Below are positions 3,960 through 30,421 of a DNA stretch of 64,000 bases, one piece after another. The stretch's first letter is position 1, and every line of letters begins with the position of its first letter. This DNA is from Bradyrhizobium sp. CCBAU 53338 (GTDB lineage: Bacteria > Pseudomonadota > Alphaproteobacteria > Rhizobiales > Xanthobacteraceae), in contig NZ_CP030048.1 in assembly GCF_015291665.1 (NCBI RefSeq), positions 5,146,001-5,210,000 on the forward strand, in the 5' to 3' direction. A program made the position numbers and the translations under genes. The notes below the pieces were generated by a model. That model was not told where the DNA came from and made no database searches. It saw only the letters and a list, made by a program, of their open reading frames with translations.

Positions 3960-5117
3960 ATGAGCACGGCCGCGACGTCCATTCCGGAAAGGAATGCCGC
4001 TGAAGTCGCGGATCTCGTCCTCGCGCCCGAGGCGGCGGCACCCGAGGCGCTGGCGCGCCGGATCCGGCAGCGACGGCAGATGTATGTCGGCCAGGCCGCC
4101 AGCTACTCGCTCGGCGCCTTCGTCCTGTTGCTCTATGCCTATGACGGCGCCATTCATTTCGACGTTCCGTCGCTGTTCTGGGTCGGCGGCCTCCTGATCA
4201 TCGGCATCTTCGTGGTCATGTCGGAGGCCGGCGTCGGCGACCAGCACACCGACCATTACCTCACGGTCTTCCAGATCTCGGCGCATATGGCGCTGCAATT
4301 CATCTTCCTGGTGTCGGTGCCGACGATCGGGATTGCCTTCATCAGCGTGCTGTTCCTGATCTTCGCCTTCGGCACGCTGCGCATGACCCCGGAACAGGCG
4401 ATGCTCACCTGGGCGCTCGCGACGCTCGCGCTCGCGGCCGTGTTCCTCGGCTCCGACCTGCCGATCGGCATGCCGGTTGCGACGCGGCTCCAGCGGACCG
4501 CCTCGATGCTCTGCTTCGTGCTGGTGATCGGCCAGTGCGCCTTCCTCGGCCTGTTCGGCGCCACGCTGCGCAAGATCCTGTACCGGCGCAGCGTCGAGCT
4601 GAAGGCCGCCTATCAGCGCATCGAGGAGCTCGCCGAGCTCGACGAGCTGACCGGCTCCTACAACCGCCGCTGCATCATGCGGCTGCTCGACGCGGAGATC
4701 GAAAAGTCGCGGCAGACTGCCGCACCGTGCGCGATCGCGCTGATCGACCTCGACTGGTTCAAGCGGATCAACGACGCGTACGGACATCCCGTCGGCGACG
4801 AGGTGCTGCGGACCTTCGCCATCACCATCTTCGCCAACATCCGGCCCGACGACCGCTTCGGCCGCTATGGCGGCGAGGAGTTTCTGCTGCTGCTGCCCGG
4901 CACCGCAATCGAGGCTGCATCGCGCATGCTCGACCGGCTGCGCAGCATCGTCGCCGAGCTCGACTGGGGCGCATTCTCGCCCGGCATGAGCGTGACCATT
5001 TCCGCCGGCGTCGTGACGCTGCGTGACGTTGATACTGCCGACACGTTCCTCGCGCGCGCCGACCGCGCGCTCTATTCCGCCAAGGCGCAAGGGCGCAACC
5101 GCATTGCTACGAGCTGA
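3960..5117 (+). CDS. Membrane-bound diguanylate cyclase (GGDEF domain)
   Basis: From the ATG at 3960 the protein has 385 residues: about six hydrophobic segments in the first 210, then a GGDEF domain. The signature is intact as GGEEF (RYGGEEFLLLLPG), so cyclic-di-GMP synthesis from two GTP is expected. An inhibitory I-site RPDD lies exactly five residues before the signature, implying product feedback. No EAL domain is present. The start was chosen because the upstream extension lacks protein character, although in-frame ATGs at 3777 and 3888 also exist. The DUF2336 gene begins 62 bases downstream on the same strand, and both probably depend on the EcfG-type promoter at 3696. Confidence 0.88.
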   Translation: MSTAATSIPERNAAEVADLVLAPEAAAPEALARRIRQRRQMYVGQAASYSLGAFVLLLYAYDGAIHFDVPSLFWVGGLLIIGIFVVMSEAGVGDQHTDHYLTVFQISAHMALQFIFLVSVPTIGIAFISVLFLIFAFGTLRMTPEQAMLTWALATLALAAVFLGSDLPIGMPVATRLQRTASMLCFVLVIGQCAFLGLFGATLRKILYRRSVELKAAYQRIEELAELDELTGSYNRRCIMRLLDAEIEKSRQTAAPCAIALIDLDWFKRINDAYGHPVGDEVLRTFAITIFANIRPDDRFGRYGGEEFLLLLPGTAIEAASRMLDRLRSIVAELDWGAFSPGMSVTISAGVVTLRDVDTADTFLARADRALYSAKAQGRNRIATS

Positions 5118-5179
5118 CCAATCCATTTATGCCGGCAGGTGAGAAGGCATCGCCGGACCGAACGCTCCAGGACAGGGCC

Positions 5180-6280
5180 ATGACATCCAAATCCGTTAAA
5201 TCATCCGAGAACATCCTCGACGAATTGCAATCGGCACTCGCGCACGGCACCGTCGCCCGCCGGGTCGAGACGCTGCGCCGCGTCACCGACCTCTTCGTGG
5301 GCAATGCGGTCGACTACTCCGACGACCACATCCGGGTCTTCGACGACGTCTTCCAATGCCTGATCGAGCAGATCGAGACCTCGGCGAAAGCATTGCTCGC
5401 CGACCGGCTCGCGCCGATCGGAGCCGCCCCGCCCCAGATCATCCGCACGCTCGCGCTCGACGACGTCATCGAGGTCGCGGGTCCCGTGCTGTCGAAGTCC
5501 GAGCGGCTCGACGAGACGACCCTGATCGAGATCGCACGCAGCAAGAGCCAGGCCCATCTCAAGGCAATCTCGCTTCGGCGGGTGCTGTCGGAAGCGCTGA
5601 CCGACGTGCTGGTGTCGCGCGGCAACGAAGACGTGGTGCAGTCGACCGTCAGCAATCCCGGTGCGAAGCTCTCCGAGGGCAGCCTCACCGATCTCATCGC
5701 CCGCGCCGAGCGCGATGACGATCTTGCGGCCTGCATCGGCCTGCGGCCCGACCTGCCGCGCCATCATTATCTGAAGCTGGTCGCCAAGGCATCCCTCAGC
5801 GTGCGCAGGAAACTGGAAGCCGCCCATCCCGAACTCGCCGACGAAGTGTCCAGCGTGGTCCAGGAAGCGGCACAGCGGGTCCGCGCCGCCGCCATGAGCC
5901 GGCAGACCGAGATGGCGCGCGCGCTGGTGAAGTCACTCCACGACGACGGCCGTCTCAACGAATTCCAGGTCGCAGCCTTCGCCGAACAGGGCAAGTTCGA
6001 CGAGACCAATGCGGGGCTCGCGGCCCTTGCCGGCGTTTCGGTCGACATCGCCGAGAACATGATGATCGAGAGCCGCACCGAGGGCGTGATGATCCTCGCC
6101 AAGGTCGCCGGGATGCAATGGTCGAGCGTGCGCGCGATCGTTGCCATGCGCGAAAAGCTCTCGGGCGGCACGCAGACCGACATGCTGTCGCTGCGCGATA
6201 CCTACGAGGCCCTGCGCAGTTCCACCGCCCAGCAGGTGCTGCGCTTCCAGCGCATGCAGAGCACGACGTCCGCGGCTTAA
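5180..6280 (+). CDS. DUF2336 domain-containing protein
   Basis: This 366-residue, largely helical soluble protein has no signal peptide. Alternating helices rich in Ala, Leu, Arg and Asp (for example VARRVETLRRVTDLF and HLKAISLRRVLSEAL) match the DUF2336 family, common in Bradyrhizobium and Caulobacter relatives and of unknown biochemistry. The start at 5180 was preferred to an in-frame ATG at 5159 or an ATG-like start at 5129 because a purine-rich stretch (AGGACAGGG) precedes it. Placement 62 bases after a diguanylate cyclase suggests shared expression and possibly a role in cyclic-di-GMP or stress signalling, which is inference only. Confidence 0.75.
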   Translation: MTSKSVKSSENILDELQSALAHGTVARRVETLRRVTDLFVGNAVDYSDDHIRVFDDVFQCLIEQIETSAKALLADRLAPIGAAPPQIIRTLALDDVIEVAGPVLSKSERLDETTLIEIARSKSQAHLKAISLRRVLSEALTDVLVSRGNEDVVQSTVSNPGAKLSEGSLTDLIARAERDDDLAACIGLRPDLPRHHYLKLVAKASLSVRRKLEAAHPELADEVSSVVQEAAQRVRAAAMSRQTEMARALVKSLHDDGRLNEFQVAAFAEQGKFDETNAGLAALAGVSVDIAENMMIESRTEGVMILAKVAGMQWSSVRAIVAMREKLSGGTQTDMLSLRDTYEALRSSTAQQVLRFQRMQSTTSAA

Positions 6281-21853: not shown

Positions 21854-24800
21854 TCAATGGAAATCCCGCGACGGCGGCAGTATGCGGACGTTGCGGGGAT
21901 GGCGAATTTTTTGCGCCGGCATATCCGCGTGGTCGCGACGATCGTCATTGAGCGGCTCGACGACCGTGGCGCCTGCCGGCACCGGAGGCTTGCGGCTCAG
22001 AACATCATTGGCAAGGCCAACCAGATCGTGCGAACGGTCGATCATGCGCTGCGCGATCAGATGCGTCACCTTCTCGGGGCTGCTCTGGATATAGCCTTGA
22101 ACCTCGATGAGGCGCGCGCCCATCACCTCTTTCCGATACTGCTCCATGACCTTGGGCCACACCACGACATTGGCAATGCCGGTCTCGTCTTCCAGCGTCA
22201 TGAACACGACGCCGCTGGCGCTGCCCGGCCGCTGCCGCACCAGCACCACGCCGGCGCAGCGGGCGCGGCGCCGTTCGTTCTCGTGGCTGATCTCCTTGCA
22301 GGCGACGATCCGCTCGCGCGAAAACATCTCGCGCAGGAATTCCATCGGATGGCCTTTGAGTGACAGACGGATGGTCTGGTAGTCGGCGACGACCTGTTCG
22401 GGACGCGGCATCATTGGCAACGGCTGCGCGTGCTCGTCCGGTTGCTCGCGGGCGGTGGCTGCTTCAAACAGCGGCAGCGCGACGTCGTCGGGCAGCCGCC
22501 GCACCTGCCACAGCGCCTCGCGGCGATCGAGCCCGAGCGAGCGGAAGGCATCCGCATCCGCCAGCAGGATCAGCGCGCGCTTGGGCAGGCCGGTGTCGCG
22601 GGCGAAGTCTTCGAGCGAGGTGAAGGGGCGGCGGTCGCGAGCGGCGATGATACGGTCGGCCCAGTCTTCTTTTTTGTCATTCCGGGGCGACGCGCCAGCG
22701 TCGAGCCCGGAATCCATAACCACCATCGGGAGTATCGATTCCGGGCTCGCGCCTGTCGGCGCGCCCCGGAATGACGACTGAATTTGCTTCAGCCTCTCTT
22801 CATCCTCATCGAGCCAATGAAAACCGTCGATCTGACGGAAGCCCAGGCGAACGGCACAATATCTGCCGTCCGTGTTCTCCAGCGTGTTCTGCGCGAAGCT
22901 GTAGGACACGTCGATTTCGCGCACCTCGACGCCGTTCTTGCGGGCATCGCCGACGATCTGCGCCGGGGCGTAAAAGCCCATCGGCTGGGAGTTCAACAGG
23001 CCACAGCAGAAGGCGTCGGGGTGATGATATTTCAGCCATGACGAGATGTAGACGAGCTGGGCAAAACTCGCAGCATGGCTCTCCGGAAAACCGTAGGAGC
23101 CAAAGCCCTTGATCTGGTCAAAGCAGCTTCTGGCGAAGTTGGCATCATAGCCGCGCGCGACCATGTTGCCGATCAGCTTCTCCTCGTATTGGCCGATGGT
23201 GCCGACATTGCGGAAAGTCGCCATCGAACGGCGCAGGCCGTTGGCTTCCTCGGGGGTGAATTTTGCCGCCTCGATCGCGATGCGCATTGCCTGTTCCTGA
23301 AACAGGGGCACGCCCTTGGTCTTGTGCAGCACCTTGTAGAGCTCGTCCGCGGGACCGTGCTCGGGCGATGGCGAGGGATAGGTCACCTTCTCCAGATTGT
23401 TCCGCCGCCTCAAGTAAGGATGCACCATGTCGCCCTGGATCGGCCCCGGCCGCACGATCGCGACTTCGATGACGAGATCGTAGAAGGTCCGCGGCTTCAG
23501 GCGCGGCAGCATGTTCATCTGGGCGCGGCTCTCGACCTGGAAGACCCCGAGCGACTCGCCGGCACACAACATATCGTAAACCCTGGGATCATCCTGCGGG
23601 ACGGTCGCCAGAACCCAACGCTCGCCCTTGTGATGGTCGATCAGATCGAAACATTTCCTGATGCAGGTCAGCATGCCCAGCGCGAGCACGTCGACCTTCA
23701 TCATGCTGAGCGCGTCGACGTCGTCCTTGTCCCATTCGATGAAGGTGCGGTCGTCCATCGCGGCGTTGCCGATCGGCACATAGGTGTCGAGCCGATCCTG
23801 CGTCAGCACATAGCCGCCGACATGCTGGGAGAGATGGCGCGGGAATTCGATGAGCTCGGTCGCAAGCTCGACCGCAAGGTTGATCATGGGATTCTGGGGA
23901 TCGAGCCCGGCCTGCCGGACCTGCATGTCGTTGAGACCCTTGCCCCAACTACCCCAGACGGTATCGGCGAGCGCCGCGGTGACGTCCTCGGTCAGGCCGA
24001 GCGCCTTGCCGACATCGCGGATGGCGCTGCGCGGACGATAATGGATAACCGTGGCGATGATCGCAGCCCGGTGGCGGCCGTAGCGACGATAGACATATTG
24101 CATCACCTCTTCGCGCCGCGAATGCTCGAAATCGACATCGATGTCGGGCGGCTCCAGCCGCTCCTTGGAGATGAAGCGCTCGAACAGCAGATCGACCTTG
24201 GTCGGGTCGACCGAGGTGATGCCGAGCACGTAGCACACGGCCGAATTCGCCGCCGATCCCCGTCCCTGGCACAAAATGTTCTGGCTGCGGGCGTAGTGGA
24301 CGATGTCGTGCACAGTGAGAAAGTAGTGCGCGTATTTCAGCTCTGATATCAGCGCGAGCTCCTTCTTCAGCGTGGCGCGCAGCTTGTCATCGATCTTGCC
24401 ACCGAAATATTTGTCGACGCCGGCCCAGGTCAGGTCCTCCAGATGCCCCTGCGCGCTCTTGCCCGGCGGCACCGGCTCGTCAGGATACTGGTACTTGAGT
24501 TGATCGAGCGAGAAGCCGATCCTGCCCGCAAAGCGCATGGTCTCCGCGATCGCATCAGGGAAATCGCGGAACAGCCGCGCCATTTCGCGGGGCGTCTTCA
24601 GAAAGCGCTCGGCATTGGCTTCCAGCTTGCGTCCGATCGTCTCGATCGTGGTCTTTTCGCGAATGCAGGTCAGCACGTCCTGCAAAGGACGGCGGCCGGG
24701 GTGGTGATAGAGCACCTCGTTGGTCGCGAGCAGCGGCACTCTTGCTGTTGCGGCGAGATCGTCGAGCCGTGCCAGGCGGCGGCGGTCATCGCCACGATAG

Positions 24801-25303
24801 ATCAGGCTCGCTGCCAGCCACACGCCTTCGGCGCGGCTTGCTTTGAGCTTTCCAAGAATATCCAACGCTTGCGCGTCATCGAACCGGTGCGGCAGCGTCA
24901 GGACCAGGAGCTGGCCTTCCACGAACTCCAGCAGATCGGCAAAGCCGAGATGGCATTCGCCCTTCTCGATCCGCGTGATGTCGTCGCCGCGCTTGCCCCG
25001 GGTCAGAAGCTGGCACAGCCGGCCATAGGCGGCGCGATCGCGCGGATAGACGAAAATGTCGGGCGTGCCGTCGATGAAGACGATGCGCGCGCCGATCAGC
25101 AGCTTTGGCTTGTGAAGCACCTTGTCATTGTCGAGCTCCTTCCAGGCCCGCACCACGCCGGCGAGCGTGTTGCGATCGGCGATGCCGATCACGGGAATGC
25201 CGAGCTTGCTGGCCTGATGCACATAGGCGCGCGGATCCGAGCCGCCGCGCAAGAAGGAGAAATTCGTGGTGATGCCGATCTCGGCATAAGCAGGCGCGTT
25301 CAT
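21854..25303 (-). CDS. dnaE2: Error-prone DNA polymerase III alpha subunit DnaE2 (ImuC)
   Basis: This 1149-residue damage-tolerance polymerase has an N-terminal PHP domain (YAEIGITTNFSFLRGGSDP), the C-family polymerase core (QGRGSAANSAVCYVLGITSVDP; EPPDIDVDFEHSRREEVMQY with catalytic aspartates) and C-terminal helix-hairpin-helix and OB parts (RARCAGVVLVRQRPGSASGVVFMTLEDE). With ImuA and ImuB it performs SOS mutagenesis. The start at 25303 overlaps the imuB stop by 4 bases (ATGA), so longer starts are rejected. Residues about 843-876 are encoded by a palindromic repeat (22676-22776) that adds a segment including SSFRGAPTGASPES and DSGLDAGASPRND without breaking the frame. Confidence 0.93.
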   Translation of the reverse strand: MNAPAYAEIGITTNFSFLRGGSDPRAYVHQASKLGIPVIGIADRNTLAGVVRAWKELDNDKVLHKPKLLIGARIVFIDGTPDIFVYPRDRAAYGRLCQLLTRGKRGDDITRIEKGECHLGFADLLEFVEGQLLVLTLPHRFDDAQALDILGKLKASRAEGVWLAASLIYRGDDRRRLARLDDLAATARVPLLATNEVLYHHPGRRPLQDVLTCIREKTTIETIGRKLEANAERFLKTPREMARLFRDFPDAIAETMRFAGRIGFSLDQLKYQYPDEPVPPGKSAQGHLEDLTWAGVDKYFGGKIDDKLRATLKKELALISELKYAHYFLTVHDIVHYARSQNILCQGRGSAANSAVCYVLGITSVDPTKVDLLFERFISKERLEPPDIDVDFEHSRREEVMQYVYRRYGRHRAAIIATVIHYRPRSAIRDVGKALGLTEDVTAALADTVWGSWGKGLNDMQVRQAGLDPQNPMINLAVELATELIEFPRHLSQHVGGYVLTQDRLDTYVPIGNAAMDDRTFIEWDKDDVDALSMMKVDVLALGMLTCIRKCFDLIDHHKGERWVLATVPQDDPRVYDMLCAGESLGVFQVESRAQMNMLPRLKPRTFYDLVIEVAIVRPGPIQGDMVHPYLRRRNNLEKVTYPSPSPEHGPADELYKVLHKTKGVPLFQEQAMRIAIEAAKFTPEEANGLRRSMATFRNVGTIGQYEEKLIGNMVARGYDANFARSCFDQIKGFGSYGFPESHAASFAQLVYISSWLKYHHPDAFCCGLLNSQPMGFYAPAQIVGDARKNGVEVREIDVSYSFAQNTLENTDGRYCAVRLGFRQIDGFHWLDEDEERLKQIQSSFRGAPTGASPESILPMVVMDSGLDAGASPRNDKKEDWADRIIAARDRRPFTSLEDFARDTGLPKRALILLADADAFRSLGLDRREALWQVRRLPDDVALPLFEAATAREQPDEHAQPLPMMPRPEQVVADYQTIRLSLKGHPMEFLREMFSRERIVACKEISHENERRRARCAGVVLVRQRPGSASGVVFMTLEDETGIANVVVWPKVMEQYRKEVMGARLIEVQGYIQSSPEKVTHLIAQRMIDRSHDLVGLANDVLSRKPPVPAGATVVEPLNDDRRDHADMPAQKIRHPRNVRILPPSRDFH
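22676..22776. repeat. Palindromic REP-pair element inserted in frame in dnaE2
   Basis: The 101-base segment begins GTCATTCCGGGGCG and ends CGCCCCGGAATGAC, perfect inverted ends. Inner arms GAGCCCGGAAT and ATTCCGGGCTC are also inverted, so each half is itself a hairpin (ATTCCGGG/CCCGGAAT) and the two halves face each other around a 24-base centre. This is a BIME-like arrangement. It is read through by dnaE2 on the minus strand without a stop. Confidence 0.85.
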
Positions 25304-26892
25304 GCGAAGAGACCGTGGACATACCAGTTGGGTGGCGTGGGCTTGCCGTCGGCATCGAACACCTCTCCCTCGTAAAGACCGTCCCGAAAGATCCAGAAGC
25401 GCAGGCCTTCGGCATCCTCGATGCGGAAATAATCCCGCGTCAGCTGCTTGCCGTCCTGCCGCCACCATTCCATGGCGATGCGCTCGGGCCCTTCCACCCG
25501 CACCACCGCATGTTTCGCGCGGCGCCAGGTGAATTGATGCGGCGGCCCGTCAGGCACGGTCGCGAACGGCACGGTGACCGGCTCCGGCTTATCGAACAGC
25601 CTGAGGGGACGCAGCGGCGGTTCACCTTCGGCACGAGCAGGCCACTGGGCCTGCATGGCGACGGCGAGATGATGCTGCGCCGGCGCGGCCAGCACCGCCT
25701 GTTCGGGGACATGGGTATCCTCAGGTAGATGCACGACGACGCGCTTTCCTCCGATCCGCGCGGCAATGCGGTCGATCAGTGCGGCGAGTTCGTCATTGTC
25801 GTGAACATGGGCGTCGAGATCGCGCTGCTCCTGCACCACGACCTCGGTGTGGCTCGCCGACAAGCGCACCATGTCGAAGCCGAAACCGGGATCGAGCGGA
25901 TCGGCGAGCGCATCGAGCCGCTCGCGGAACAGCCGGTCGATCACGGCGCTCCGCGTCACCGGACGTCCAGTCTCGACCATGATCGCGCGCACCACGCCGT
26001 CGGTGCGGAAGAACGCGGCCTCCAGCCGGCGCGCGCCCTTGCCCTGCTTCTCCATGGAGGCGATCAACGTATCAGCCAGTCGCGACAGCGTCATCGCGAT
26101 CATGGTGTCGGTCGCGATCGGCTCGGCAAAGCGCTTCTCCACGATGTAATCGGGCAGCGGCTTGCGCGGGCTGATCGGCGCATCGCCCTGTCCCAGCGCA
26201 TGCGCGAGCAGCGTGGAGAACCGCGCGCCGAACCGCGCCGTGATTTCGGAGGCGCTGCGCGATGCGACATCGCCGATGGTCTTCAGGCCGGCGCGGCGCA
26301 GGCCGGTGGTGATGGTCTCGTCCGCACCGAGCGCGGACACCGGAAACCGGTCGATCGCCGCCGCCTCGCCGCCATCGGCGACGATGTTGCCCGTGGCCTG
26401 TCGCGTCAGCGTGCGCGCGCAGACCGAAGTGCCGGCAATCGCCGCGCTGACGGCAAAGCCCTGACGGTCGAGCGCCCGGACCAGTGTCTGCAACAGTGCA
26501 GCCTCGCCGCCGAACAAATGCGCGCAGCCAGTGATGTCCAGGAACAATCCATGCGGCGCATCGAACGCCACCAGCGGGGTGAAGCGATCGCACCAATCGG
26601 CGATATCGCTCAGCGTTTTCGCGTCGGCCACGACATCGGCGTCGAACACTTTTAAATCCGGACACACCGCCCGCGCATTGGCGAGCGGCTGGCCGATGTA
26701 AAGTCCGAGCCGCTCGGCGGCCTCGTCCAACGCATGGATCACCAGCGCGTTGTTGTTCTTGATGACGACGATGCTGGGATCATTGGCCTTACCCAGCCCG
26801 GCGCTGTTGAAGAACCGCTGGATCCGGTCGATGGGCAGGCGCGGCAGCCACAGGCTGAGAATACGTCGACGGTTCACTGAACTGGCACTCAT
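25300..26892 (-). CDS. imuB: ImuB, Y-family polymerase-like mutasome subunit
   Basis: This 530-residue Y-family polymerase homologue begins RRRILSLWLPRLPIDRI. The catalytic carboxylates of active Y-family enzymes are not evident at the equivalent N-terminal strand, as expected for ImuB, which acts as an adaptor joining DnaE2 and the beta clamp. The start at 26892 has a GGAAG ribosome binding site and lies inside the 3' end of imuA (104-base overlap). The stop overlaps the dnaE2 start (ATGA). Part of the imuA-imuB-dnaE2 SOS operon. Confidence 0.9.
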   Translation of the reverse strand: MSASSVNRRRILSLWLPRLPIDRIQRFFNSAGLGKANDPSIVVIKNNNALVIHALDEAAERLGLYIGQPLANARAVCPDLKVFDADVVADAKTLSDIADWCDRFTPLVAFDAPHGLFLDITGCAHLFGGEAALLQTLVRALDRQGFAVSAAIAGTSVCARTLTRQATGNIVADGGEAAAIDRFPVSALGADETITTGLRRAGLKTIGDVASRSASEITARFGARFSTLLAHALGQGDAPISPRKPLPDYIVEKRFAEPIATDTMIAMTLSRLADTLIASMEKQGKGARRLEAAFFRTDGVVRAIMVETGRPVTRSAVIDRLFRERLDALADPLDPGFGFDMVRLSASHTEVVVQEQRDLDAHVHDNDELAALIDRIAARIGGKRVVVHLPEDTHVPEQAVLAAPAQHHLAVAMQAQWPARAEGEPPLRPLRLFDKPEPVTVPFATVPDGPPHQFTWRRAKHAVVRVEGPERIAMEWWRQDGKQLTRDYFRIEDAEGLRFWIFRDGLYEGEVFDADGKPTPPNWYVHGLFA

Positions 26893-27577
26893 CACACTTC
26901 CATTCCATGATCCACCGGCCACACGGGCCGTGACGATTACGCAGCAGCTCGACATCGAAGCGCGGCGCGCCCCAGGCACTCCAGGCTGGCCCCGGCGGCG
27001 AATGCGCCGCGCGCAGCATCCACCGCGTCTCCGCGGTCGAGGGCAAAGGTTGCGCCGCCATCCGCAGCAACAGACCGGTGACGCCGGAACCCTGCGCGGC
27101 CAGCGTCAGCTTGCGACTCGCCACCAGATCGAACTGCCTGGTCTCGCCCCAGAGCTCGAGCACGACGGCACCCAGCGCATCGCAGGCGAGCGCATCGGCC
27201 GAGGTGCGCAGTGCACTCTCCACGTCGGCGGCACGCACCATTACGATACGGCGCGGATCGAGGCCGAGCTCGGCGAGCCCGCTCATCGACAGCGCGCCGG
27301 TTTCAAGTTCCGAGAAATCCTGCCGCACCCACAGCAGCGGCCGCTGCGCCGTGATGCGACCCGCAAGCCCGGTGACAAAACCGGTCGCGGCCGCGCCTTG
27401 GCGCCCCTCGCAAAACACCTCGTGGATTGCCGCACGCGCGAGCCCACCTTTCAAGGCGCGATCGACTTCGCCGTGACCGAGCACGACACGGTCCTGATGA
27501 TGCACGACCTCCGCCGTCTCGATCCGTTCGATCTGGCTGCGCAAGGTCGCAAGCGCGCTTCTGCGTGCGCCGCTCAT
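26789..27577 (-). CDS. imuA: ImuA, RecA/SulA-like mutasome accessory protein
   Basis: This 262-residue protein is distantly RecA-like, with the ImuA features VDRALKGGLARAAIHEVF and PLLWVRQDFSELETGALS. In alphaproteobacteria and mycobacteria it is required for ImuB/DnaE2-dependent mutagenesis. It is the first gene of the operon, with a LexA box about 70-80 bases upstream of its start. The C-terminal 35 codons overlap the imuB start. Confidence 0.88.
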   Translation of the reverse strand: MSGARRSALATLRSQIERIETAEVVHHQDRVVLGHGEVDRALKGGLARAAIHEVFCEGRQGAAATGFVTGLAGRITAQRPLLWVRQDFSELETGALSMSGLAELGLDPRRIVMVRAADVESALRTSADALACDALGAVVLELWGETRQFDLVASRKLTLAAQGSGVTGLLLRMAAQPLPSTAETRWMLRAAHSPPGPAWSAWGAPRFDVELLRNRHGPCGRWIMEWKCDECQFSEPSTYSQPVAAAPAHRPDPAVLQQRRAG

Positions 27578-27643: not shown

Positions 27644-27658
27644 GTTCATGATATGTTC
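27644..27658. promoter_or_regulatory. LexA (SOS) box between imuA and the radical-SAM gene
   Basis: GTTC at 27644-27647 and GTTC at 27655-27658 are separated by exactly seven bases, a perfect match to the alphaproteobacterial LexA operator GTTC-N7-GTTC. It lies in the 163-base divergent region: 67 bases from the imuA start and 83 bases from the radical-SAM start. It could control either or both transcripts. Confidence 0.85.
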
Positions 27659-27740: not shown

Positions 27741-28979
27741 ATGGACGTGCACCGCAAGCTGGAGATTCTCGCAGATGCCGCCAAGTACGACGCCTCCTGC
27801 GCTTCCAGCGGCACCGAGAAGCGGGATTCCAGCGACGGCAAGGGCATGGGCTCGACCGCGCCCGGCATGGGCATCTGCCATTCCTACGCGCCGGACGGAC
27901 GTTGCATTTCGCTGCTCAAGGTGCTGCTGACCAACGCCTGCAATTACGATTGCCTCTATTGCGTCAACCGCGCCTCCTCCAACGTGCCGCGCGCCCGCTT
28001 CACCATCGACGAGGTGGTCAAGCTCACGCTCGACTTCTACCGGCGCAATTACATCGAGGGACTGTTCCTCTCCTCCGGCATCATCCGCAGCCCCGACTAC
28101 ACCATGGAGCAAGTGGTGAGCGTCGCGCGAAAGCTGCGCGAGGAGCATCACTTCCGCGGCTACATCCATCTCAAGACCATTCCGGAAGCCGATGACGCGC
28201 TGATCACCGAAGCCGGCAAATATGCCGATCGTCTCTCCATCAACATCGAAATGCCCGAGGCGGCGAGCCTTCGGCAATTCGCGCCGGAAAAGGACGTGCG
28301 TGCGATCCGTCGCACCATGGGCCGGCTGCGTCTGAAGCTCGACGAGGCCGAGGAAGACCGCGTAGCGAAGACGACGAAAGTAAAGCCGCCACGTTTCGCG
28401 CCGGCCGGCCAAAGCACGCAGATGATCGTTGGCGCCGACAGCGCGAACGATCACACCATTCTCCATACAAGCGCCAATCTCTACGGCTCCTACCGGCTGC
28501 GGCGCGTCTATTACTCCGCCTTCAGCCCCATCCCGGATGCCAGCCGCGCGTTGCCTCTGGTCCAGCCGCCACTGCTGCGCGAGCACCGGCTCTACCAGGC
28601 CGACTGGCTGATGCGCTTCTACGGCTTCGATGTCGGCGAAATCGTCGACGACAGCGCGATGCTTCCGCTCGACATCGACCCGAAGCTGGCCTGGGCCCTG
28701 CGCCATCGCGACCGTTTCCCGCTCGACGTCAACCGCGCCAGCCGCGAGGAGCTGTTGCGCGTGCCGGGCTTCGGCACCAAGGCGGTCGAGCGCATCATCG
28801 CGACGCGGCGCACCACCACGATCCGCCTCTCCGATCTCGCGCGGCTGCACGTGCCCCGCAACAAGGCGCTGCCGTTCATCGTCCTCAGCGATCATCGTCC
28901 CGCGCCGCATCGTCTCGATGCTGCCGGGCTGATCGAACGGTTCAAGCCGAAGGCAACGCAACTGGGGTTTGGCTTCTGA
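27741..28979 (+). CDS. Putative DNA modification/repair radical SAM protein
   Basis: This 412-residue radical-SAM enzyme has a CxxxCxxC [4Fe-4S] motif at Cys67, Cys71 and Cys74 (CNYDCLYC), a long central barrel, and a C-terminal helix-hairpin-helix (NRASREELLRVPGFGTKAVE) suggesting DNA binding. It belongs to the family always found next to UdgX-type uracil-DNA glycosylase genes (annotated as a putative DNA modification/repair radical SAM protein); the reaction is unknown. The start at 27741 follows an AAAGGGA ribosome binding site; frames upstream run through the LexA region and are rejected. Its stop shares one base with the next start (TGATG). Confidence 0.85.
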   Translation: MDVHRKLEILADAAKYDASCASSGTEKRDSSDGKGMGSTAPGMGICHSYAPDGRCISLLKVLLTNACNYDCLYCVNRASSNVPRARFTIDEVVKLTLDFYRRNYIEGLFLSSGIIRSPDYTMEQVVSVARKLREEHHFRGYIHLKTIPEADDALITEAGKYADRLSINIEMPEAASLRQFAPEKDVRAIRRTMGRLRLKLDEAEEDRVAKTTKVKPPRFAPAGQSTQMIVGADSANDHTILHTSANLYGSYRLRRVYYSAFSPIPDASRALPLVQPPLLREHRLYQADWLMRFYGFDVGEIVDDSAMLPLDIDPKLAWALRHRDRFPLDVNRASREELLRVPGFGTKAVERIIATRRTTTIRLSDLARLHVPRNKALPFIVLSDHRPAPHRLDAAGLIERFKPKATQLGFGF

Positions 28980-30421
28980 TGCAATATATCACCCTCGACA
29001 GCGAAACCGATTTCGACGGCTGGCGCAAAGCCGCGCGCAGCCTCGTGCTTCATCACGTGCAGCCCGCCGATGTCACCTGGGTCGTGCAAGGAGGCGACGC
29101 CGAATTGTTTGCACCGCCTTCGCCGTCTCCGATCCTCGAGACGAACGACGGCACGTTCAACGTGCCGGCCAAATTCATCGACCTCGCGAAAGCGGCAATC
29201 CTGCATCGCGACGGCGAGCGTTTTGCGATCCTCTATCGCCTGCTCTGGCGGCTGAGGGACAACCACGATCTCATCGAGGTCGCGACCGATCCCGACGTCG
29301 CGCTGGTCACGGCGATGGCGCGCGCGGTCCATCGCGACGAGCACAAGATGCATGCCTTCGTGCGCTTTCGCGAGATCGGCCGCGAACGCGCGGCGCATTA
29401 CGTCGCCTGGTTCGAGCCGGAACATCACATCGTCGAGCTCGCAGCCCCATTCTTCGCCAAACGCTTTGCCGACATGCCGTGGTCGATCCTGACGCCCGAT
29501 CTCTGCGCGCATTGGGACGGTCACGCGCTCTCGTTCACACCGGGCGTGAGCAAGAGCGAGGCACCGAGCGAAGACCGGCTGGAGGAGACATGGCGGCGCT
29601 ACTACGCCAGCATCTTCAATCCGGCGCGGCTCAAGGTGAAGGCGATGCAGACGGAGATGCCGAAGAAATACTGGAGGAACCTGCCCGAAGCCTCGATCAT
29701 TAAGCCCCTGATCGAGGACGCCGAGCGCATGACCGGTGCTATGATCGCCAATGCCGCAACCGATCCGCACAAGCCCCAGAAGCGGCCGGAGGCTCCGATG
29801 AAACGCAAGTCCGCTGCCGACGATCTCGAAACGCTTCGCGAGGAGGCCGCCCATTGCCGCGCCTGCCCGCTCTACAAGGACGCGACGCAGACTGTGTTCG
29901 GTGAGGGACCGAAGGACGCCACCATCATGCTGGTCGGCGAGCAGCCCGGCGACAAGGAGGACCTTGCCGGTCATCCCTTCGTCGGCCCGGCCGGCCAGGT
30001 GCTCGACCGAGCGCTCGCGGAAGCCGGCGTCGATCGCAAGAAGGTCTATGTCACCAACGCGGTGAAGCACTTCAAATTCGTGCCGCGCGGCAAGATCCGT
30101 TTGCATCAGAAACCGGCAACGCCGGAGATCAAGGCGTGCCGGCAATGGTATGAGCGTGAAGTGTCGGCAATCCAGCCCGAGTTGATCGTGGCGATGGGCG
30201 CGACCGCCGCACAGAGTGTATTCGGCAAGATCACGCCCATCGGCAAGACCCGCGGCCGGCTCATAGACCTCCCTGAAGGACGCAGAGCTCTCGTGACGGT
30301 GCATCCGTCCTACCTGCTGCGACTGCCCGATCCGGAAGCCAAGGTGCTCGAGTATCAGCGCTTTGTCGAAGACCTGAAGATCGCCGCGGCGTTGCAGAAG
30401 AAAGCACCGCGCGCCGCCTGA
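28979..30421 (+). CDS. DUF4130-UdgX fusion, uracil-DNA glycosylase family
   Basis: This 480-residue fusion has an N-terminal DUF4130 domain (about 85-250) and a C-terminal UdgX domain (about 285-470). UdgX features are clear: GEQPGDKEDLAGHPFVGPAG, TNAVKHFKFVPRGKIRLH and VTVHPSYLLR. UdgX enzymes bind uracil in DNA and become covalently trapped through a histidine in a KRRIH-like loop; here the loop reads KIRLH with His376 in that place. Three cysteines (HCRAC, KACRQW) and the KHF histidine fit the 3Cys-1His iron-sulfur site. Translation is coupled to the radical-SAM gene (TGATG overlap), implying a joint role in DNA repair. Confidence 0.9.
   Translation: MQYITLDSETDFDGWRKAARSLVLHHVQPADVTWVVQGGDAELFAPPSPSPILETNDGTFNVPAKFIDLAKAAILHRDGERFAILYRLLWRLRDNHDLIEVATDPDVALVTAMARAVHRDEHKMHAFVRFREIGRERAAHYVAWFEPEHHIVELAAPFFAKRFADMPWSILTPDLCAHWDGHALSFTPGVSKSEAPSEDRLEETWRRYYASIFNPARLKVKAMQTEMPKKYWRNLPEASIIKPLIEDAERMTGAMIANAATDPHKPQKRPEAPMKRKSAADDLETLREEAAHCRACPLYKDATQTVFGEGPKDATIMLVGEQPGDKEDLAGHPFVGPAGQVLDRALAEAGVDRKKVYVTNAVKHFKFVPRGKIRLHQKPATPEIKACRQWYEREVSAIQPELIVAMGATAAQSVFGKITPIGKTRGRLIDLPEGRRALVTVHPSYLLRLPDPEAKVLEYQRFVEDLKIAAALQKKAPRAA

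What the first reader, a model, noticed from the sequence alone, without database searches (positions are those of the whole stretch)
27741..30421. Translation-coupled radical SAM and DUF4130-UdgX pair facing an SOS mutasome operon
The sequence shows a radical-SAM protein with a C-terminal helix-hairpin-helix whose stop shares a base with the start of a DUF4130-UdgX fusion. The UdgX part carries the KRRIH-like loop as KIRLH, with His376 placed to trap uracil-DNA covalently. UdgX enzymes form a covalent adduct that must be removed or used somehow. A coupled radical enzyme with a DNA-binding motif is a natural candidate partner, either to resolve the adduct or to modify the base. That joint role is inference.
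Basis: partly seen in the sequence, partly recalled or inferred. Interest (0 to 1): 0.72.

Follow-up and report, generated by a model that had tools for sequence, protein, structure and literature searches.

The report
SOS-linked radical-SAM and uracil-trap operon
Beside its error-prone DNA-copying genes this bacterium carries a damage-linked gene pair, a radical enzyme and a partner protein predicted to weld itself to uracil sites in DNA; the pair is of a known kind with unknown function, and comparison shows that the radical enzyme's constant partner is the other half of that protein, not the uracil trap.

Summary
Window 27741-28979 encodes TIGR03916 (radical SAM, C-terminal HhH) and 28979-30421 DUF4130 fused to UdgX, overlapping by one base. 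A LexA-type box (27644-27658) lies between them and imuA-imuB-dnaE2. The families and their pairing are known, and SOS control of such operons is in print; function is unknown. Added here: (1) The constant partner of the radical-SAM protein is DUF4130: 31 of 31, 42 of 42 and 16 of 16 genomes in three overlapping samples, twice even unlinked. UdgX is optional: 8 of those 31 genomes and 10 of 76 complete loci lack it, and four genomes of one genus kept UdgX after losing the rest. (2) In fusions the crosslinking residues are invariant (67 of 67). (3) The box recurs (59 of 62 alphaproteobacterial loci; 5 of 471 control ORFs). (4) In one family the pair sits inside the mutasome cassette (9 of 40 loci). 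(5) The radical-SAM protein has three extra invariant cysteines. Adduct resolution as core role is not supported. Best reading: an SOS-induced, DNA-directed two-protein radical enzyme, with UdgX as an accessory covalent cap on uracil/abasic sites beside ImuB-DnaE2. The chemistry is inferred.

The parts
27741..28979 (+). radical SAM protein, TIGR03916 (rSAM_link_UDG), 412 aa, with C-terminal helix-hairpin-helix
   Evidence: 564.5 bits vs cut-off 343.5; PF04055
27939..27962 (+). radical SAM cluster motif CX3CX2C (C67, C71, C74)
   Evidence: invariant in 86 of 86 aligned proteins
27798..27905 (+). stretch with three further invariant cysteines C20, C46, C55 (possible auxiliary cluster ligands: inference)
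   Evidence: 86 of 86; residues 20-54 are low-confidence in the model
28722..28811 (+). helix-hairpin-helix (residues 328-357)
   Evidence: PF12836, 22.4 bits, below cut-off 27; ComEA-like chain at E 0.03
28979..30421 (+). DUF4130-UdgX fusion protein, 480 aa; start overlaps the rSAM stop by one base
28997..29692 (+). DUF4130 / TIGR03915 domain (residues 7-238)
   Evidence: 227.9 bits vs 112.25; R119 H122 R129 E146 H149 R162 N214 R217 E237 identical in 67 of 67 fused proteins
29699..30382 (+). UdgX domain (residues 241-468)
29936..29950 (+). UdgX motif A GEQPG (residues 320-324)
   Evidence: E321 and Q322 67 of 67
30092..30106 (+). R-loop KIRLH (372-376), His376 the predicted crosslinking residue
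   Evidence: R374 and H376 67 of 67; H376 aligned to H109 of 6ajo
27644..27658 (+). LexA-type operator GTTC-N7-GTTC in the divergent intergenic region
   Evidence: a box of this type within 120 nt upstream in 59 of 62 alphaproteobacterial loci
26789..27577 (-). imuA-like gene, divergent
   Evidence: NF033429, 37.9 bits, below its cut-off of 150
25300..26979 (-). imuB-like gene (Y-family polymerase relative)
   Evidence: PF00817 and PF11799 over cut-off
21854..25468 (-). dnaE2, error-prone polymerase (ORF as listed; true start probably near 25312)
   Evidence: NF004225, 1559 bits vs 939, match from residue 58

Best explanation
The two genes form a LexA-controlled DNA-damage operon. The radical SAM protein and the DUF4130 domain are an obligate two-component enzyme: HhH and DUF4130 bring the radical SAM centre to damaged or gapped DNA, where it carries out radical chemistry on a base or sugar (partnership shown by co-occurrence; DNA as substrate and the chemistry are inferred). 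The UdgX domain is an optional add-on to DUF4130 that excises uracil and stays covalently bound to the abasic site, capping it against strand cleavage while the SOS polymerase ImuB-DnaE2 works nearby (crosslinking residues conserved; capping role inferred from a published UdgX proposal). Because each UdgX molecule acts once, inducing it only under SOS makes sense (inference).
For: Pairing rSAM-DUF4130 over cut-off: same 31 of 200 genomes; all 42 rSAM genomes of 59; same 16 of 101; some genomes are in two samples. In the only 2 of 40 fetched loci with no DUF4130 in reach it lies elsewhere in the genome, so the pairing is not mere linkage. DUF4130 follows rSAM in 78 of the 82 loci; the other 4 run out at a contig end, one of them 774 bases on. 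rSAM-DUF4130 with no UdgX beside it also in a Bacteroidota and a Clostridia record. UdgX residues E321, Q322, N360, R374, H376 67 of 67. LexA-type box: 28 of 30 loci; 59 of 62 alpha loci against 5 of 471 control ORF upstreams and a shuffle mean of 0.22 of 62; 38 of 40. Mutasome linkage: imuA, imuB or dnaE2 found within the flanks (up to 6 kb) in 10 of 80 genome loci, in several arrangements, and imuB plus dnaE2 in 10 of 40 of one family. Published: SOS regulation of a COG1573-COG4277 operon (PMC8565304, passages); DUF4130 tied to SplB-like radical SAM and UDG (PMC3765255, figure legend in passages).
Against: No substrate, product or mutant phenotype was found. The LexA box is a sequence match; binding in this genome is untested. 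Loci without a recognisable box: 2 of 30, 3 of 62 alpha, 2 of 40, and 7 of 16 beta/gamma even with a pattern widened after inspection, 5 of them Xanthomonas-Rhodanobacter kin. DUF4130 has no recognised fold here and was not searched alone. One genome (G244) has a partial DUF4130 match over cut-off without rSAM. The two unlinked DUF4130-UdgX genes have no exact box near them. Most loci are not next to imuA or dnaE2 in the flanks seen.
Confidence: 0.5

Rival explanations
1. One reading: the radical SAM enzyme resolves the covalent UdgX-DNA adduct, or turns it into another product, so UdgX and rSAM are the working pair.
For: Gene overlap in the window and in 53 of 78 loci by my choice of start codon (gaps); fusion of UdgX to the constant partner DUF4130; association in 200 genomes (23 with both, 8 rSAM only, 6 UdgX only; Fisher p 3e-18, not corrected for kinship).
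Against: rSAM-DUF4130 without UdgX in 8 of 31 genomes and 10 of 76 complete loci, and beside none in a Bacteroidota and a Clostridia record; UdgX kept after loss of rSAM and most of DUF4130 in four genomes of one genus; the long list of rSAM positions invariant across 50 aligned proteins includes 10 proteins from loci without UdgX.
Confidence: 0.1
2. Tether model: the UdgX crosslink is a covalent anchor that holds the DUF4130-rSAM enzyme at a uracil or abasic site so that it can act on the neighbouring lesion or stalled polymerase.
For: UdgX is fused to DUF4130 in 66 of 76 complete loci, and all 67 fused copies aligned keep the crosslinking residues.
Against: Pairs without UdgX exist; no evidence for uracil near the true substrate.
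Confidence: 0.2
3. SPL-like direct reversal: the rSAM protein is a photoproduct lyase of vegetative cells, as the published 'SplB-like' label suggests; UdgX serves a separate purpose.
For: Published label (PMC3765255, passages); a gene called splB predicted under LexA in alpha- and betaproteobacteria (PMC3323433, passages; whether it is this family was not tested); HhH; radical SAM fold.
Against: No spore photoproduct lyase model among the NCBIfam matches at E 0.001; three invariant extra cysteines N-terminal to the cluster motif. Neither is decisive.
Confidence: 0.15
4. DNA modification: the pair installs a damage-induced base modification (for example sulphur insertion with an auxiliary cluster) rather than repairing a lesion.
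Against: Cysteine spacing (C-X25-C-X8-C) is not the CX4CX5C of lipoyl synthase (recalled); HydE is tied on Z; one orphan only, its chromosome not searched.
Confidence: 0.1

Closest known systems
NCBIfam TIGR03916 / TIGR03915 / TIGR03914 (COG4277-COG1573 operon; that COG4277 is this rSAM family is recalled)
   Same: Both proteins are members well above the curated cut-offs; the model names (rSAM_link_UDG, SAM_7_link_chp) show that the pairing was known. SOS regulation of a COG1573-COG4277 operon reported for Bacteroidetes, with Verrucomicrobia and Alphaproteobacteria cited (PMC8565304, passages).
   Different: This locus shares one intergenic region, with one exact box, with imuA-imuB-dnaE2; in another family the pair lies inside that cassette in 9 of 40 loci.
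UdgX of Mycobacterium smegmatis (6ajo, 6l6s, 6iod)
   Different: Solved chains of about 209 aa without DUF4130; here the C-terminal half of a DUF4130 fusion in an SOS-type operon. Motif B reads HPSYLLR instead of HPS(S/A)(L/V)(L/V)R.
Lipoyl synthase / HydE (radical SAM, auxiliary cluster)
   Different: 12-15% identity, other cysteine spacing, HhH C-terminus. Analogy only.
SRAP/HMCES-type abasic-site capping (works like, not a member)
   Same: Covalent capture of abasic sites (recalled); SOS-linked in bacteria (PMC3765255, passages).
   Different: Unrelated fold and chemistry (recalled); UdgX makes its own abasic site from uracil.

Membership tests
UdgX | TIGR03914 over curated cut-off | tested here: met
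   343.4 vs 189.95 bits
UdgX | Motif A GEQPG with Q53 | tested here: met
   residues 320-324
UdgX | R107 and H109 signature in the R-loop | tested here: met
   R374 and H376, 67 of 67; H376 aligned with H109
UdgX | Motif B HPS(S/A)(L/V)(L/V)R | tested here: not met
   HPSYLLR: Y in the S/A place, as in 47 of 65 aligned fused proteins, window included; rest of the motif met. The two residues that the 2023 paper calls the signature are met, so I keep the UdgX name
UdgX | Covalent crosslink to DNA after uracil excision | not testable with these tools
   needs a gel-shift assay
TIGR03916 radical SAM | Over curated cut-off, CX3CX2C present | tested here: met
   564.5 vs 343.5 bits; C67, C71, C74
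TIGR03915 / DUF4130 | Over curated cut-off, next to TIGR03916 | tested here: met
   227.9 vs 112.25 bits; genes overlap
LexA (SOS) regulon | GTTC-N7-GTTC operator upstream | tested here: met
   27644-27658; recurrent
LexA (SOS) regulon | LexA binding and RecA-dependent induction | not testable with these tools
   needs an experiment
Spore photoproduct lyase | Match to SPL models / fold | tested here: inconclusive
   no SPL model in NCBIfam hits at E 0.001; fold lists are not exhaustive
Lipoyl synthase | N-terminal CX4CX5C auxiliary cluster motif (recalled) | tested here: not met
   cysteines spaced C20-X25-C46-X8-C55

The most novel reading that the evidence does not exclude
The operon is a trap-and-bypass arm of the ImuAB-DnaE2 mutasome. 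UdgX welds itself over uracil/abasic sites in SOS single-strand gaps, and the DUF4130-radical SAM enzyme, with a second iron-sulphur site built on C20/C46/C55, performs a new DNA-directed radical reaction at or near those sites before DnaE2 copies past them. In some alphaproteobacteria trap, radical enzyme and polymerase are one gene cassette.
Probability: 0.2. Interest if true: 0.82.

Novelty: new member of a known kind. Interest (0 to 1): 0.5.

Why it matters
The physiological role of UdgX is described as largely unknown (PMC10359453, passages), although it is used as a tool. In the library searched no paper holds both the words 'UdgX' and 'radical SAM' or 'UdgX' and 'SOS response'; two papers do link a UDG, not called UdgX, with DUF4130 or COG4277 and SOS. 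Placing UdgX, by a recurrent LexA-type box and by gene order, in an SOS-type operon, and in some genomes inside the mutasome cassette, gives it a directly testable setting. It also weakens the simplest story (rSAM repairs the UdgX adduct) and points to rSAM-DUF4130 as the unit whose chemistry needs to be found.

Tried and rejected
Adduct resolution as the core role: rejected as the main reading (see rivals). A first count of loci without UdgX (12 of 76; tree with 15 unfused rows) was wrong: my filter missed L075 and L084, which are fused. Corrected to 10 of 76 and the tree labels redone. One search ignored the strand of half the loci and is superseded.

Beta/gamma boxes: with the exact pattern CTGT-N8-ACAG upstream of the start, 3 of 16; after I allowed the box to run over the start codon and A or C at one place, 9 of 16. 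That widening was made after looking. The two verrucomicrobial loci (L115, L143) were left out of both counts (62 + 16 + 2 = 80). The control ORFs are stop-to-stop frames of 250 aa or more with the first ATG as start, so some are not genes.

No match is not evidence of a new fold. No spore photoproduct lyase appears in the top 50 rows for the rSAM model, which does not exclude it. The relative orientation of DUF4130 and UdgX is not reliable (pTM 0.58).

The tree is a quick one in which long branches meet; at least 5 changes of UdgX state on well-supported branches cannot tell gain from loss. Fisher p values ignore kinship. The window's order sample also held a 39-residue rSAM remnant with a stop (G300).

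Phage and plasmid searches show the genes on plasmids and in a few phage-collection records. Defence-system libraries were not searched. A LexA-bound 'Radical SAM protein' in Streptomyces (PMC9380542, passage) was not identified to family.
Full report
What is there. The rSAM gene (27741-28979) ends TGA at 28977-28979 and the second gene starts ATG at 28979. Family matches are far over curated cut-offs for TIGR03916, TIGR03915 and TIGR03914. The model names rSAM_link_UDG and SAM_7_link_chp show that the link was known to the curators. The HhH matches are weak. The divergent genes are imuA-, imuB- and dnaE2-like. By nearest relatives the genome is a Bradyrhizobium: rSAM is 95-96% identical in four named Bradyrhizobium loci, which group with the window in the tree.

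Control. A box GTTCATGATATGTTC lies at 27644-27658 between the two operons. GTTC-N7-GTTC is the published Caulobacter SOS box (PMC9578287, passages). Such matches are expected by chance in 64 kb, so the test is recurrence. Of 30 rSAM loci from Pseudomonadota genomes (30 of the 31 with the gene had a locus) 28 have a LexA-type box within about 105 nt upstream, 22 of the direct-repeat type and 6 CTGT-N8-ACAG; L003 and L018 have none. Of 62 named alphaproteobacterial loci 59 have the direct repeat within 120 nt upstream; 5 of 471 control ORF upstreams do, and shuffles give 0.22 of 62 on average, 3 at most. Two of the three misses, L072 and L142, have a one-mismatch box. Of 40 loci of one further family 38 have it. 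In most of these loci no imuA is seen nearby, so the box is the operon's own. Beta- and gammaproteobacterial named loci gave 9 of 16 with a pattern widened after inspection. SOS control of such an operon is in print: a two-gene COG1573-COG4277 system in Bacteroidetes, with reports cited from Verrucomicrobia and Alphaproteobacteria (PMC8565304, passages). The two cited originals were not held. That COG4277 is this rSAM family is recalled.

Who pairs with whom. The same 200 Pseudomonadota genomes were searched with each of the three families. rSAM is over cut-off in 31, DUF4130 in the same 31, UdgX in 29. A 32nd genome, G071, has only a DUF4130 remnant of 50 profile positions with a stop. rSAM and UdgX share 23; 8 rSAM genomes have no UdgX over cut-off and 6 UdgX genomes have no rSAM. 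In 59 genomes of the family of G087 (unnamed; like sphingomonads in gene order, inference) rSAM is in 42 and DUF4130 in those 42 plus one partial match in G244. In 101 genomes of the window's order both are over cut-off in the same 16. Some genomes are shared between samples. In 40 loci fetched from that family (40 of the 42) DUF4130 lies in the fetched stretch in 38, and in the other two genomes it is present elsewhere. The pairing is therefore not only linkage. Among the 82 loci have DUF4130 after rSAM, in 53 of them with overlapping genes by my choice of start. L115, L145 and L147 end within 120 bases; L146 ends 774 bases on, after an ORF like one found between the two genes in L140. In single records, Parabacteroides (annotated) and Acetoanaerobium (by profile) have rSAM and DUF4130 with no UdgX beside them.

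UdgX is a module that comes and goes. Of 76 loci with a complete second gene 66 are fused to UdgX and 10 are not (corrected from 12). On a quick rSAM tree of 84 rows (80 labelled) the state changes at least 5 times on well-supported branches and 7 times by parsimony. Four of the six UdgX-only genomes are of one genus in the window's order. Compared with an intact relative of that genus their sequence stops matching near the start of rSAM (just before it in two, 5 and 36 bases inside it in two) and resumes in the last part of DUF4130 in three and inside the start of the UdgX match in one. Junctions differ, which suggests separate or continuing deletions. All four keep KRRIH. In G071 a LexA-type box remains just upstream of the truncated frame; the other three have no exact box in the fetched stretch. 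So UdgX is kept without rSAM, and rSAM-DUF4130 is kept without UdgX. A strict enzyme-adduct partnership does not fit.

The mutasome. In 10 of 80 named genome loci imuA, imuB or dnaE2 lie within the flanks of up to 6 kb: divergent as in the window in four Bradyrhizobium loci, Methylopila L074 and Henriciella L106; on the same strand in L132 (imuA-imuB-rSAM-DUF4130/UdgX-dnaE2), L138 and L145 (contig ends before dnaE2) and L141 (dnaE2 behind only). In the family of G087 10 of 40 loci have imuB and dnaE2 near, 9 of them in the order imuA-imuB-rSAM-DUF4130/UdgX-dnaE2 on one strand. Two different arrangements suggest that the link arose more than once. Some flanks are short and single-sequence queries miss distant imuA and imuB, so counts are lower bounds.

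How it most likely works. Shown: constant rSAM-DUF4130 partnership, optional UdgX with intact trapping residues, recurrent LexA-type operator, linkage to ImuAB-DnaE2 in part of the genomes. Inferred: that the substrate is DNA, that DUF4130 and HhH position the radical centre, and that UdgX caps uracil/abasic sites in SOS gaps. The capping idea follows the proposal that UdgX protects AP sites from fragmentation (PMC10359453, passages). Earlier authors suggested that DUF4130 is a mutagenesis-related enzyme tied to enzymes that might modify thymines (PMC3765255, legend in passages), and that UDGs in the SOS response address misincorporation by error-prone polymerases (PMC8565304, passages). In the passages I saw, neither was tested.

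Novelty. The locus is a new member of a known, uncharacterised kind. What I did not find in the library searched is the word UdgX together with radical SAM or SOS response; papers outside that library were not seen. An expression hint for the rSAM family exists: a gene so named is up in desiccated Acinetobacter (PMC13130816, passage).

Noticed in passing
L076, L082, L084, L127 and L113 (UdgX domains): Five fused UdgX domains (four Acetobacteraceae/Roseomonadaceae, one Mesobaculum) have lost the cysteines matching C293, C296 and C387 (iron-sulphur ligands by recall) but keep the R-loop R and H.
   Followed up: partly
L140 about 4089-4539; L146 from 6236: A hemerythrin-like ORF (judged by eye from sequence) sits between rSAM and DUF4130 in a Sphingomonas locus, and a similar one follows rSAM in a viral-collection contig that ends before any DUF4130.
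   Followed up: no
L042, L044, L046, L052: Four genomes of one genus have lost rSAM and most of DUF4130 with different junctions but keep UdgX.
   Followed up: yes
L150 about 4001-5260: A Gemmatirosa plasmid encodes an orphan relative of the rSAM protein without the three extra cysteines and without DUF4130 on the record.
   Followed up: partly
plasmid records: 158 plasmid records carry the rSAM gene, led by Phaeobacter, Paracoccus and Azospirillum; some of these records are chromosome-sized.
   Followed up: no
G000:C1:5743852-5744388 (L002): The same genome has a second, family-4-like UDG below the UdgX cut-off (129.9 bits), so UdgX is not its only enzyme of this superfamily.
   Followed up: no
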